A DNA stretch of 36,947 nucleotides, taken from NCBI GenBank assembly GCA_030611765.1, contig JAUWPE010000012.1, positions 1 to 36,947 of the forward strand, written 5' to 3'. The notes under the pieces were generated by a model. It did not search any database and had not been told where the DNA came from. It saw nothing but the letters and a program-made list of their open reading frames with translations. The stretch comes from Candidatus Cloacimonadota bacterium (lineage in GTDB: Bacteria; Cloacimonadota; Cloacimonadia; JGIOTU-2). Numbering within the stretch: the first letter of the stretch is position 1; every line of letters starts with the position of its first letter. Positions 9,535-36,947 of this stretch are shown here, in pieces. A program made the position numbers and the translations under genes.

Positions 9535-10098
9535 CTAGCTTTGAATCTTTTTAGGTGACACGAAACCGATTAGGAAGCGACCTTCCATCCTTGGTTCTTG
9601 TTCAAAATCGCCACACTCTTCAAGTTCCTCTTGAATTCTTTTGATGAGTTCCCAGCCCAATTCTTTATGAGCCATTTCTCTTCCTCGGAACTGAATAGTG
9701 ACCTTGACTTTATTTCCTTTTTCCAGGAATTCTTTGATGTGCTTGACCTTAAAATTATAGTCATGCTCATCAGTTCTGGGACGGAATTTGACTTCCTTAA
9801 GCTGTGTCGATTGCTGTTTCTTTTTTGCTTCACGAGCTTTCTTGGACTCTTCAAAAATCAGTTTACTGTAATCGATTATCTTACAAACCGGTGGATTTGC
9901 TTTCGGTGCTATTTCCACAAGATCGAGTCCATACTCGCGAGCTTTATGAAGAGCATCTTGAGTCGAAACAATACCCAGAGCTTCCTTATCGGGACCAATC
10001 AAACGAACCTTTCTAGCAGTAATTCTTTCATTAATTCTTTTATCGTTTTTATAGCGTTCCCGCTGTTTCCAGGGTTTAAACCGTCTATTTATTGAGAT
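9535..10098 (-). CDS. infC: Translation initiation factor IF-3, predicted AUC start
   Basis: The ORF-track version (9535-10002, TTG) lacks the N-terminus. The frame continues upstream as ISINRRFKPWKQRERYKNDKRINERITARKVRLIGPDKEALGIV with no ATG/GTG/TTG; GGAGG sits 6 nt before ATC at 10098-10096. Confidence 0.9.
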   Translation of the reverse strand: MSINRRFKPWKQRERYKNDKRINERITARKVRLIGPDKEALGIVSTQDALHKAREYGLDLVEIAPKANPPVCKIIDYSKLIFEESKKAREAKKKQQSTQLKEVKFRPRTDEHDYNFKVKHIKEFLEKGNKVKVTIQFRGREMAHKELGWELIKRIQEELEECGDFEQEPRMEGRFLIGFVSPKKIQS

Positions 10099-10103
10099 TA
10101 GAT

Positions 10104-10225
10104 ACCTCCAAATAAAAAAAGTGACCGACTGCGGATCACTTTCAATATTATTGAAATTATTTCTTGTACCTTATTAACAGCTTTGGCGTCATAAGGTAGG
10201 AACTCGCAGTTCCTTTTTATGGTGT
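10104..10225 (-). promoter_or_regulatory. Structured leader of infC-rpmI-rplT operon (L20/IF3-type attenuator candidate)
   Basis: GGAACT/AGTTCC hairpin (10199-10213), ACCTTAT/ATAAGGT stem (10168-10197), TTTCAAT/ATTGAAA hairpin overlapping the terminator's 5' arm, then the terminator. Confidence 0.6.
10112..10141 (-). terminator. Intrinsic terminator hairpin in the infC leader
   Basis: Minus: AAGTGA(T)CCG-CAGT-CGGTCACTT followed by a T-run; immediately upstream of the infC Shine-Dalgarno. Confidence 0.75.
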
Positions 10226-10336
10226 TACTTATTTTTTACATATTTTGAGCGTCAAGTTTTTATACTTTGAATGATTATCATGCTCTATCACATTTCTTTT
10301 TCTTGACGATTAAAGTCACACTATTGTCTTGCTCCT

Positions 10337-11473
10337 ATGAAAAATATTTTCATGCTGGTTGGCGAGCGTTCTGCAGATGTCCATGCTGCCGAAGTAATTA
10401 AGCAGTTCAAACAGAAAAACCCTTCCCTTAATATTTGGGGAATTGGCGGTCCGTTGATGCAGAAGCAGGGATTCGAATCCATATTCCCTTTTTCAAAATT
10501 TTCAATAATTGGTTTCGCAGAAGTAATCGGTCATCTTGGGTTCATTCTAAAAGTATTCCGAAAACTCAAATCTGAATTCATTGCCCGAAAACCTGATCTT
10601 GCTATACTCGTTGACTATCCCGGCATGAATATTCGAGTTGCAAAGATCGCCTACGAATTTGACATACCTGTTCTGTATTATATCAGCCCGCAGGTGTGGG
10701 CATGGAAGAAAAAGCGTATTCATAAAATTGCCAAATACTCCGACAAAATCGCAGTGATTTTTCCGTTTGAAAATGAGCTTTATGAAGAGATCGGCGCTGA
10801 TGTTGAATACGTAGGACATCCAATAAGTGAGGAAATCACAATATCTGAAACACAAGAAGAATTTGCCGAAAAATACTCCCTCGATCTTAAAAAGGATTGG
10901 GTAGGATTTATCCCGGGAAGCAGAAATGTGGAAATCAAAAGAATTCTCCCTGAAATTGTTGAAACGATCAAAAACTTAAAAAACATCTATAAAGATTCTT
11001 GTCAATTTCTCCTATCTCAAGCTGATTCCGTATCAGATAAGCTATTTCAAAAAATCCTCTCTCCTGTGAAGAAAGATGTCACGATCATTCATGACACACA
11101 CGCTCTCATGAAATACTGCAAGGTCGTTGTGTGCAAATCCGGCACTTCCACGCTGGAAACCGGCTATCTGGGAACCCCAATGGTAGTCGTCTATAAAACC
11201 TCATCGCTTTCATATTTTATAGCACGAGCTTTCATAAAGATCAATATGATCGCTCTTGCAAATATTGTGATCGGGGAAAAAGTAGTGCCGGAACTCATTC
11301 AACATGCTGCCGCTGCCGAGAATATCACAAAAGAGGTCAGCTTATTTCTTGAAGATGACAATTACTATCAAAAAACAAGAAATGAGCTGCGTATCATAAA
11401 AGAAAAATTGGGAAAATTCAACACCTCTGAAAAAGTTGCATTAATTGCGATTTCAATGATCAATGAAACATAA
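10337..11473 (+). CDS. lpxB: Lipid-A-disaccharide synthase
   Basis: 378 aa; VGERSADVHAAEVI, GIGGPLMQKQGF, DYPGMNIRVA, YYISPQVWAWKKKRI, VGHPISEE, CKSGTSTLETGYLGTPMVVVYK. Confidence 0.93.
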   Translation: MKNIFMLVGERSADVHAAEVIKQFKQKNPSLNIWGIGGPLMQKQGFESIFPFSKFSIIGFAEVIGHLGFILKVFRKLKSEFIARKPDLAILVDYPGMNIRVAKIAYEFDIPVLYYISPQVWAWKKKRIHKIAKYSDKIAVIFPFENELYEEIGADVEYVGHPISEEITISETQEEFAEKYSLDLKKDWVGFIPGSRNVEIKRILPEIVETIKNLKNIYKDSCQFLLSQADSVSDKLFQKILSPVKKDVTIIHDTHALMKYCKVVVCKSGTSTLETGYLGTPMVVVYKTSSLSYFIARAFIKINMIALANIVIGEKVVPELIQHAAAAENITKEVSLFLEDDNYYQKTRNELRIIKEKLGKFNTSEKVALIAISMINET

Positions 11474-32668: not shown

Positions 32669-33889
32669 TTATTCTGTCGGATCGACAATTCTGCCGACAA
32701 ATAAAATACTTCCCGTCTGGTTTTCACGGATCAAAAACATAAAGGGGTGATCTGCCCGAAAAATCAACGGCTTTACAGCTACACTTTTCATCATAACTAC
32801 CGCTGTTGCTGCAGCAGCTTCCGTGCCTTCTTCATTTACATCCACAAATGCTTTGTGAATTACCTTGCTAATAAAAAGATCTTCTGTTCCGGTCATCCTG
32901 GAAAAATCAGCTGGAGGAAGTGAAAAGGCACTCGGCATTCCCATATCATACAATACTTGAGATAATTCAAATTCGCAAGTGGTTTTAAATTTAGGAATAC
33001 TGACTAAAATTTCTGATTCATGGCTTCCCATAAGTTCATCTATCCAGATTTTTACCGTATCGTTTGTTAAAACTTTTTCGAATTCTGCCAAGCCATCAAT
33101 CTTTTTGGGCAAAAATATGATCATGGATAGTTCATTACCTTCATAGGGTAATTCTAATGCGCAAAACTTATCAAAATCTTTATATCTGAAATCTGATCTT
33201 TGGCTCATCATGGGAACTTTGATGGTTTTGTCAGGGGAAACATAAAAATCTGTTTTCGTAGTTTTTGTTGAGTCGAATTGACTTTGCCAGTTACCCTTGA
33301 AATAGATCGCATTGCACAGAACCAATCGTGTTAACGAATTGAGCATTGGCGGTTTTATCAATTCTTTGATCTTGTCATGAGTTTTCTTTTCCACCCAGTT
33401 ATTTATTTGCTTTCGTGCAGCTTCTCTCTTTGTGATAAAATCAACAAAATACAAGCCGGCATCATAATATTTTTTGTTCAAATCGATGAAAGTATCCAGG
33501 AATTTAAAACTTTTTTGCGCCCACAGGGAGTTAGCTATACTTATTTGAACATCCCCTTTATTTTGAATAGCATTCAAATCCGACTGGAGTTTTGAAAACG
33601 CCGGATGCAGACTTTCCTGCGTGAGCGGAAAATGCAGGACCTGTGCCATTTGTTTTTCGGTTTCTCCCCGTGCACCAGCATAGGTCATAGCAAGTGCGGT
33701 TGAAATACTATAGGGTGAAAAGAATAAATTCCCCTTTGCCCCTTTAAGTTCTTGATACAGATCAAAACCGAAATCGCTATTCCCTTTTACAACTGTTTGC
33801 AGATCTTTATTTATTTTCGCAAAAGCAGAAGAAGAGAACAGGCAAATAACTATCGTGATAATTAGAATAAAAGTAAATTTAGTTTTCAT
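32669..33889 (-). CDS. Serpin family serine protease inhibitor, secreted
   Basis: 406 aa; signal peptide; NLFFSPYSISTALAMTYAGARGETEKQMAQVL; IYFKGNWQSQFD; hinge VNEEGTEAAAATAVVM; DHPFMFLIRENQTGSILFVGRI. Confidence 0.96.
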   Translation of the reverse strand: MKTKFTFILIITIVICLFSSSAFAKINKDLQTVVKGNSDFGFDLYQELKGAKGNLFFSPYSISTALAMTYAGARGETEKQMAQVLHFPLTQESLHPAFSKLQSDLNAIQNKGDVQISIANSLWAQKSFKFLDTFIDLNKKYYDAGLYFVDFITKREAARKQINNWVEKKTHDKIKELIKPPMLNSLTRLVLCNAIYFKGNWQSQFDSTKTTKTDFYVSPDKTIKVPMMSQRSDFRYKDFDKFCALELPYEGNELSMIIFLPKKIDGLAEFEKVLTNDTVKIWIDELMGSHESEILVSIPKFKTTCEFELSQVLYDMGMPSAFSLPPADFSRMTGTEDLFISKVIHKAFVDVNEEGTEAAAATAVVMMKSVAVKPLIFRADHPFMFLIRENQTGSILFVGRIVDPTE

Positions 33890-34206: not shown

Positions 34207-35184
34207 TTAAATATTCAATATTCTTTTAGCTCTCATTAATACATAATCATATGTTAATATTGATAAGTTATGATACTCAGAATTTAATATTCTATATGCC
34301 TCTTTGTGCTCTTTAGTCCAATCGTTTGAACGACCAAAAATCAAAACGCATCTAGGTTTTATAGTTTTTATAAAATCAACTCGCTCAAGGAATTTTAAAC
34401 TATTTGCCTCCCTCTCAATTTCATAAATGTATCTAGATGCTTGCGTAACAGCTTTAATTAAATCTGTTGAAGGAACTAAATTATTATGGTCTTTCTTATC
34501 CATCCAAAATTTCAGATTCCCTTCGGGTCTTTTTATCTCAATGATATCTAGAAATCCATCATATGCTTCCATTAAAAAATCAGAGATGTTAGAGGTGTCA
34601 ATCTCTCTATCATCAAGAATTCTTACAAACTCACTTCCTAATACCCAATCATTTTTCTCAAACCATTATTGCCACTTGTGCTCTGCTAAATTATCTTCTA
34701 ACATTACCTCAAATTCTTTAACAGCATTTACCTTTTGAATATTCTGTAAACCCATTAATAAGTCTGCTGGTAATATTTCATTATCAACTATAAATTCAAT
34801 TAATTCTGATTTTTTAGGATTAGCAAATAAGGCTTGCAAATGTGAGATTTGTTTTTTATCAAATTTCTCATTAAGTAGAATATATTCCTTAATCCCTTTT
34901 TTAAAAGGCTTATGGTTTTCTTGTAGAAACGCAATCAGATTATGAAATTCTTCTTTATCCAGAGTCAAGGCACTTTTAGGTTCTGATACCTCTGGGATTT
35001 CTTGATTCGAAAGGATAAGACCTGTTTTCTTTTTATACCTACCTATTTTTAGTCTGACGTCATCTACATTATGAGAATGAGGAATTTTCCAAAAAGCCAC
35101 ACGAGAAACAACGGTCTTTTTGTCTTTAAGAATCCCGAATAAATAATCTAATCCTTTTGTTGTTGTTCCTTTATGTGTTTTCAT
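34207..35184 (-). pseudogene. sduA: Shedu-type nuclease SduA (DUF4263), interrupted by one in-frame TAA
   Basis: ORF 34666-35184 and downstream 34207-34572 are in the same frame; read-through gives ...AEHKWQ*WFEKNDWVLGSEFVRILDDREIDTSNISDFLMEAYDGFLDIIEIKRPEGNL... with PD-(D/E)XK-like D...EIK and TQASRYI. Stop at 34666-34668. Confidence 0.85.
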
Positions 35185-35299: not shown

Positions 35300-36349
35300 T
35301 CACATATAGCCCAATGATTTATACACTTTGTTACCTGCTGGCATTCCTCTATTGTCAGATAATTTAGTTTGTATTCGTTTATTTCTGATTAGAATCCTAA
35401 AATATGGACATTTCCCATTTATTGACAAATCTTTTTCATCATTTCCTTTTCTGAATTTAATTATTTCAAACTGTTCGGGGTTGAATTTATGTAGAAATGT
35501 TATAGGTACACCCATAAATCCTTTGTAGTCTGATGGTATGTCTTTAGTTTTATTAACATTAATACCATCATAATTGTCATATCGGGGATATTCAATTTCG
35601 TTTCCAAAATATTTCTTTGTGGGAGTAATATCTTCGTGTCGTTTAGAAGTATCTAAATTAGTTAACCACAAACAATTGTTGGGAGAAACTATTCTATTTC
35701 CAAAACTATCAATCCGAGTCTCTGTGCCGTAAAGTTCATAGTGTTCAGGTACAATAAAACCTGAAATACCTCTACCTAGATTTATTCCTAACCACGCATC
35801 ATTTCCCTTAATTAGTTTAAAAATTTCTTTATAGGTGATAGCATTAATGTTGCCAATTATCAAAAATTTCTTATCGTATTTAGCTAATTGAGCTACATAC
35901 TCCCTGAATAATGAAAATGGGGGATTAGTAACAACAATATCAGACTGCTTTAATAGTTCGATACTTTCAGCACTACGAAAATCTCCATCCCCTTTAAAAT
36001 GAATGATGTTATTTGAACTTGGTTTAATTTTTTCTCCTTTTGCACCTGTATATTCATAGAAAAAACCACTTTTAAATTCTTCGGTATTAAACAAATCCCT
36101 ATCTTGTTTTCTGTAACAAGCAGATATTAGTTTTTTAATACCTAATTCCTTAAAGTTTAATGCAAAATAATTAAAAAAATTACTAATCCGAGCATCATCA
36201 CAATTACAAAAAACTACTTTGCCTTTAAAATGATTTTTATAATGTTGTAATTCACTTTCTATATCTGAGAGCTGTGTATAAAACTCATCATTCTTATTGG
36301 TTTTTGCTTTTCTCAATAAAGAGTGTTGTACTTTTCTTGCCATTGTCAA
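35300..36349 (-). CDS. EcoRI-family adenine-specific DNA methyltransferase
   Basis: 349 aa; LLRKAKTNKNDEFYTQLSDIESELQHYKNHFKGKVVFCNCDDARISNFFNYFALNF, SDIVVTNPPFSLFREYV (NPPF); resembles M.EcoRI; directly downstream of the EcoRI-like endonuclease remnant. Confidence 0.92.
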   Translation of the reverse strand: MTMARKVQHSLLRKAKTNKNDEFYTQLSDIESELQHYKNHFKGKVVFCNCDDARISNFFNYFALNFKELGIKKLISACYRKQDRDLFNTEEFKSGFFYEYTGAKGEKIKPSSNNIIHFKGDGDFRSAESIELLKQSDIVVTNPPFSLFREYVAQLAKYDKKFLIIGNINAITYKEIFKLIKGNDAWLGINLGRGISGFIVPEHYELYGTETRIDSFGNRIVSPNNCLWLTNLDTSKRHEDITPTKKYFGNEIEYPRYDNYDGINVNKTKDIPSDYKGFMGVPITFLHKFNPEQFEIIKFRKGNDEKDLSINGKCPYFRILIRNKRIQTKLSDNRGMPAGNKVYKSLGYM

Positions 36350-36355
36350 CCTGTA

Positions 36356-36820
36356 TTATTCGTTATTGGTAATCTGGTTAAATATTTCACTTCCTAATAC
36401 TCTAAGAGAGGTTTTAGAAATTTCAATCATAATATCAAACATTTTTTCCGCATTCCATTTTTCCCCATCTCCTTGTGTAAATATTGAAGTTGCTTGAAGC
36501 ATTATTGTTTTCTTGTTATATTTAACATACTTATTTTCACACAAATTAGTATTAATTGGCATTCCATAATTTGCAGAGGTCAATCTATCTAACCTATTTA
36601 GCATCCCTGAATTATAATTAAGCGTTACAACCCTTCCGTCTGGTCTTTTAACTGAAATAGTTTCTGTTAAGAAATTAGACCCTTCTAAAAATAATATGTA
36701 TGGAAAATGAGATTCAGATAACATAAAATTAGCAATTTCAGATATGTTCTTATGCGATCTCTCTATTGCATTACCAGCAGCCATCAAGTCTTGATTGTTA
36801 TTTTTACCAACTAGTGTCAT
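36356..36820 (-). pseudogene. 5'-truncated EcoRI-like restriction endonuclease
   Basis: VGKNNNQDLMAAGNAIERSHKNISEIANFMLSESHFPYILFLEGSNFL...YNSGMLNRLDRLTSANYGMPINTNLC...IMLQATSIFTQGDGEKW; closely matches remembered R.EcoRI from about residue 128 on, lacking the catalytic N-terminal part. Confidence 0.9.
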
Positions 36821-36821
36821 G

Positions 36822-36947
36822 TCAAGACTCGATAGTCGGATAAAGTCTTTTGAGTTTTATTCGTGCATCATCAGTAGTAAATTGCCAATTGATTATGCTA
36901 TTTTTTGAGTTTCTACATTCTACCCAGGCTTCTACTTCTTTTTCTAT
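36822..36947 (-). mobile_element. IS630-type transposase C-terminus (partial, runs off window)
   Basis: Minus frame ...IEKEVEAWVECRNSKNSIINWQFTTDDARIKLKRLYPTIES*; WQFTTxDARIKLKxLYP is typical of IS630-family C-termini. Confidence 0.75.

What the first reader, a model, noticed from the sequence alone, without database searches (positions are those of the whole stretch)
36356..36947. EcoRI-like endonuclease beheaded at a junction with an IS630-type transposase
The minus frame 36356-36820 gives an R.EcoRI-like C-terminal half that keeps the GNAIER and LNRLDRL segments, equivalent to DNA-contacting E144/R145 and R200/R203 of EcoRI. It starts at about EcoRI residue 128, so the segment carrying catalytic D91, E111 and K113 is absent. 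Immediately upstream is the C-terminus of an IS630-like transposase ending 36822. A TA dinucleotide lies at the junction (ACTAG), compatible with IS630 target preference. The ATG at 36818-36820 appears to come from the transposase side, so the IS may supply a start codon for a catalytically dead but possibly GAATTC-binding fragment.
Basis: partly seen in the sequence, partly recalled or inferred. Interest (0 to 1): 0.8.

Follow-up and report, generated by a model that had tools for sequence, protein, structure and literature searches.

The report
Restriction enzyme gene split by transposon
A mobile DNA element jumped into a bacterium's gene for an EcoRI-type DNA-cutting enzyme and broke it, leaving the partner protective methylase intact; the "missing" first half of the gene lies on another contig of the same genome, so this is an ordinary gene disruption split by the assembly, not a new protein.

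Summary
Window 36356-36820(-) is the C-terminal half of an EcoRI endonuclease gene, fused at its 5' side to the end of an IS630-family element. The contig stops 134 nt inside that element. The head is not lost: contig C20 of the same assembly (9973-10353) carries residues 1-127, with catalytic D91, E111 and K113, then the other end of the same IS. Joining the flanks at the TA gives an unbroken 278-residue homologue of the 277-residue EcoRI. The IS sits in codon 127, at a CTAG target with a TA duplication. A full 1203-bp copy lies on C78. In three sister species the genes flanking the two contig ends are neighbours without EcoRI genes, so a chimera is very unlikely. The EcoRI methylase is intact, so the system has probably become methylase-only. 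The ATG does come from the IS: its terminal repeat reads outward as ATGACAC and adds M-T-L to any frame starting CTA-Gnn. Such open frames are not significantly more frequent than background (6 of 14 ends against 23%, P = 0.08). A folded, GAATTC-binding fragment is unsupported. A neighbouring Shedu gene is also broken by a stop codon. This is ordinary.

The parts
36814..36947 (-). 134 nt of an IS630-family element: its transposase 3' end, with terminal inverted repeat GTGTCATGTCAAG (plus strand) at 36814-36826; contig ends inside it
   Evidence: 100% identical to the complete copy on C78; NF033545 transpos_IS630 on the complete copy
36822..36947 (-). C-terminal 41 codons and stop of the IS630 transposase (IEKEVEAW...YPTIES*)
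   Evidence: identical to the end of the L003:4709-5332 ORF
36812..36813 (.). TA target-site duplication within CTAG; the other copy is at C20:10352-10353
36818..36820 (-). IS-borne ATG (ATG ACA C in the terminal repeat), in frame with the endonuclease remnant, 1 nt after the transposase stop
36356..36811 (-). ecoRIR-like gene, 3' part (EcoRI residues 128-277, plus one extra terminal residue)
   Evidence: PF02963 E 2e-86; PDB EcoRI E 5e-74; joined 278-aa alignment
35300..36343 (-). intact EcoRI-type adenine methyltransferase, 347 aa from ATG, 12 nt after the endonuclease stop
   Evidence: PF13651 E 1e-129; ungapped over the 326 residues of M.EcoRI
34207..35184 (-). Shedu SduA gene with one in-frame TAA at 34668-34666 (neighbour, likely pseudogene)
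   Evidence: PADLOC SduA E 9e-139 over the read-through frame
32669..33889 (-). serpin-like gene: conserved right-hand neighbour of the defence insertion site
   Evidence: adjacent to the C20 glycosyltransferase in three sister species; the names serpin and glycosyltransferase are from reading the sequence, not from a family search

Best explanation
A chromosomal EcoRI-type restriction-modification operon (R upstream, M downstream) sits next to a Shedu gene in a variable spot between a glycosyltransferase gene and a serpin-like gene. It suffered a single insertion of a 1203-bp IS630-family element. The element entered the TA of a CTAG in codon 127 of the endonuclease gene, duplicated the TA, and split the enzyme into a catalytic N-terminal piece (C20) and a C-terminal piece (this window). 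The assembler broke at the repeat, which is also present on C78, so the halves are on two contigs. Shown: both halves, both IS ends, the TA duplication, a perfect in-frame join, and empty sites in sister genomes. Inferred: endonuclease activity is lost while the intact methylase keeps marking the DNA, so the loss is tolerated. In E. coli EcoRI the methylase has its own promoters inside the R gene (PMC3874152); whether they survive here is not shown. The ATG in the IS terminal repeat is a passive by-product that leaves an open frame; a stable or functional fragment is unlikely.
For: C20:10021-10374 matches PF02963 positions 1-118, and it is the only other match in the genome. The other IS end is at C20:10353-10490, 100% identical. 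The flank join ...GGA AAA CTA GTT GGT AAA... gives 278 residues, ungapped against EcoRI (277 aa) apart from one extra C-terminal residue, with PDG, EAK, GNAIER and LNRLDRL in place. The glycosyltransferase of C20 and the serpin of C145 are adjacent on one contig in G007, G001 and G005, on the same strand. A complete IS copy is on C78. The methylase is intact.
Against: The middle ~932 nt of this IS copy are not assembled and no reads were available, so physical linkage C20-IS-C145 is inferred. An intact allele in other cells of the population is not excluded. Loss of cleavage and retention of methylation are not measured.
Confidence: 0.94

Rival explanations
1. The IS-supplied ATG makes a new functional protein: a cleavage-dead EcoRI C-terminal fragment that binds GAATTC, or regulates or inhibits an intact system.
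For: The ORF is open and in frame from an ATG inside the IS repeat, 1 nt after the transposase stop, which could allow coupled reinitiation. Residues 128-277 are well conserved with EcoRI. The other assembled IS copy (C78) also gives an in-frame MTL start on a host gene.
Against: In-frame outward ORFs of 60 codons or more occur at 6 of 14 IS ends, against 23% of CTAG directions (P = 0.08), so no selection is shown. The fragment lacks the strands bearing D91, E111 and K113, part of the core sheet (structural knowledge, not tested here). No Shine-Dalgarno better than GAG is seen upstream of the ATG. The insertion looks recent: the IS copies are identical over the shared ends, so an open frame is expected without selection.
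Confidence: 0.03
2. The junction is an assembly or binning chimera: unrelated IS and EcoRI sequence were joined, and an intact endonuclease gene exists.
For: Both contigs end within the IS repeat. Contigs in other species also end inside related IS copies. No reads are available.
Against: Both junctions carry the same TA/CTAG and join in frame to the residue. The flanking genes are syntenic neighbours in three sister species. Only one N-half and one C-half exist in the genome.
Confidence: 0.03

Closest known systems
EcoRI restriction-modification system (R.EcoRI PF02963 / M.EcoRI PF13651)
   Same: Gene order R then M on one strand, full-length colinear R (once joined) and M, catalytic and DNA-contact motifs in the two halves.
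   Different: R is interrupted at codon 127 by an IS; M carries a 21-residue C-terminal extension relative to the E. coli plasmid copy; it lies between conserved genes of the genus, beside a Shedu gene.
IS630 family insertion sequences
   Same: DDE_3 transposase (PF13358, NF033545), inverted terminal repeats, TA duplication within CTAG.
   Different: The transposase is in two frames meeting near an A8 run (possible frameshift). The terminal repeat contains an outward ATG and a TTGACA hexamer.
R-M systems reduced to a solitary methylase
   Same: Broken endonuclease beside an intact methylase. Four other EcoRI-family loci here (L033, L068, L071, L091) also have R split over two matches with full-length M.
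   Different: The break here is an IS insertion. [quoted passage not shown] this would be one such case.

Membership tests
EcoRI-type endonuclease gene (disrupted) | full-length PF02963 homology, N- and C-terminal | tested here: met
   profile 110-257 in window, 1-118 on C20; joined 278 aa vs 277
EcoRI-type endonuclease gene (disrupted) | catalytic D91, E111, K113 | tested here: met
   PDG and EAK present in the C20 half; not in the window ORF
EcoRI-type endonuclease gene (disrupted) | intact reading frame for an active enzyme | tested here: not met
   gene interrupted by the IS on both contigs: a pseudogene of the family
EcoRI-type endonuclease gene (disrupted) | recognises GAATTC | not testable with these tools
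   needs biochemistry
EcoRI-type methyltransferase | full-length PF13651 with NPPF motif | tested here: met
   E 1e-129; VTNPPFSLF aligned with M.EcoRI
IS630 insertion sequence | DDE transposase of the IS630 family | tested here: met
   NF033545 146.8 bits over cut-off 100 on the C-terminal ORF of the C78 copy
IS630 insertion sequence | inverted terminal repeats and TA duplication | tested here: met
   16-bp CTAGTGTCATGTCAAG at both ends on C78; TA on both sides of the EcoRI insertion
IS630 insertion sequence | active transposition | not tested
   identical shared ends suggest recent movement only

The most novel reading that the evidence does not exclude
The terminal repeat of this IS630 group acts as a portable start codon (ATG-ACA-CTA). 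Insertion at in-frame CTAG sites then re-starts translation of truncated host genes by stop-restart coupling with the transposase, making amino-terminally trimmed but expressed proteins: an MTL-ABC ATPase on C78, and here an EcoRI DNA-binding remnant.
Probability: 0.06. Interest if true: 0.4.

Novelty: new member of a known kind. Interest (0 to 1): 0.17.

Why it matters
It documents one step of restriction-modification decay with an exact empty-site comparison: the endonuclease is lost by IS insertion while the methylase survives, which is the viable order of loss. It also warns that a "beheaded" gene at a contig end can be an assembly break at a repeat, with the head on another contig. The IS repeat's built-in outward ATG is a small, testable curiosity.

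Tried and rejected
Intact alleles were sought in 16 other genomes of the family: PF02963 gave none, and the IS gave none, so both were probably acquired by this species. A sigma-70 promoter scan of the junction was at chance level (5 found, 3.4 expected); the perfect TTGACA in the IS end is followed 17 nt later by AATAAC, too weak to claim. GAATTC is not avoided in the 60 kb read (31 against 29.4 by a Markov estimate). A scan of viral contigs for the IS end pattern gave 29 single hits, not followed up. No structure prediction of the fragment was run, because a prediction with a family alignment would probably return the native fold whether or not the fragment is stable. Paper searches for start codons supplied by IS630 ends found nothing relevant.

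Full report
Observation. The window is one entire contig (C145) of a 189-contig, 2.23-Mb assembly. The minus-strand ORF 36356-36820 is the C-terminal part of an EcoRI endonuclease (PF02963, E 2e-86, profile 110-257; PDB EcoRI, E 5e-74). Upstream of it the contig runs 134 nt into an IS630-family element. The frame ...RIKLKRLYPTIES* has its stop at 36824-36822 and is identical to the end of the transposase ORF on contig C78, which NCBIfam calls IS630. The break is in the codon of residue 127.

The missing head. A search of the same genome with the EcoRI family finds exactly one more match, C20:10021-10374, covering profile positions 1-118. A search with the IS finds its opposite end at the end of that same contig, C20:10353-10490, 100% identical. 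Contig C20 reads ...GGA AAA CTA|GTGTCATGTCAAG (IS), and the window minus strand reads (IS) CTTGACATGACAC|TA GTT GGT AAA.... Joining the flanks with one TA gives an uninterrupted 278-residue protein, ungapped against the 277-residue EcoRI apart from one extra C-terminal residue, with the PDG and EAK motifs of D91, E111 and K113 in the C20 half and GNAIER and LNRLDRL in the window half. The gene was therefore cut by one IS insertion, not deleted.

The element. The complete copy on C78 spans L003:4701-5903 (1203 bp) inside TA duplications, with 16-bp terminal repeats that include CTAG. It carries an N-terminal ORF (HTH domains) and a C-terminal DDE_3 ORF in another frame, meeting near an A8C run; programmed frameshifting is possible but not shown. 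Related elements in the phylum keep the same terminal repeat and CTAG site, and several of their contigs also end inside the repeat.

Not a chimera. The glycosyltransferase gene left of the insertion (C20:8117-9571) and the serpin-like gene on C145 (32669-33889) are immediate neighbours on the same strand in three sister species: G001 (141 nt apart), G005 (182 nt) and G007 (1220 nt, with a different 255-aa gene between). In this genome the same interval holds EcoRI R (split), M and a Shedu gene. So the ends of C20 and C145 belong together, and the interval is a small variable spot for acquired genes. None of 16 other genomes of the family has PF02963.

State of the system. The methylase ORF is intact: 347 aa from ATG, ungapped over all 326 residues of M.EcoRI, with NPPF. 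It starts 12 nt after the endonuclease stop. In the E. coli system the methylase can be expressed from promoters within the R gene (PMC3874152), so loss of the R head need not silence M. That this holds here is inference, and the promoter scan is uninformative. Among 80 relatives fetched, 74 have a full-length R in one match. L033, L042, L068, L071 and L091 have R split over two matches (L042 also has a split M), and L047 is cut by its contig end. Endonuclease damage beside a kept methylase therefore seems recurrent, though assembly errors in those loci were not excluded.

The start codon. Reading outward, both ends of the IS contain CATGACAC-TA-G, so any insertion into a codon CTA followed by G places ATG-ACA-CTA in frame. 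On C78 the empty site reads ATG AAT AAC AAC CTA GTA ATA CAG (MNNNLVIQ...), and the IS-bearing gene reads MTLVIQ..., an ABC ATPase. At the transposase 3' end the ATG follows the transposase stop by 1 nt. Over 14 distinct IS ends in the phylum, 6 give outward ORFs of at least 60 codons, against 23% of CTAG directions in the 60 kb read (P = 0.08). This is a built-in property without evidence of selection, and nothing here shows that the EcoRI remnant is made, folds or binds DNA.

Verdict. An IS630-type disruption of an EcoRI endonuclease gene, split across contigs by the repeat.

Noticed in passing
window 34207-35184 (-): A Shedu SduA gene (PADLOC E 9e-139 when read through) has one in-frame TAA at 34668-34666: two neighbouring defence systems, both broken. 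A consensus error cannot be excluded without reads.
   Followed up: partly
L003:4036-4707 (-) (contig C78): The second copy of the IS inserted 5 codons into an ABC ATPase gene, replacing MNNNL by MTL from its own repeat and leaving a full-length open frame.
   Followed up: yes
between C20 glycosyltransferase and C145 serpin; L139, L140, L141: Variable spot in the genus: empty in G001 and G005, an unnamed 255-aa gene without a Pfam match in G007, EcoRI R-M plus Shedu here.
   Followed up: partly
L033, L042, L068, L071, L091: EcoRI-family endonuclease genes split over two matches in other bacteria, four of them with a full-length methylase.
   Followed up: no
L013, L018, L019, L021, L036, L054, L056, L062: EcoRI-family endonucleases 84-89% identical over the C-half in Patescibacteria-type MAGs (Levybacteria, Woesebacteria, Kaiserbacteria and others), suggesting wide horizontal spread or binning errors.
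   Followed up: no
window 35303-35365 (-): The methylase carries a 21-residue C-terminal extension (KLSDNRGMPAGNKVYKSLGYM) absent from the E. coli plasmid copy.
   Followed up: no
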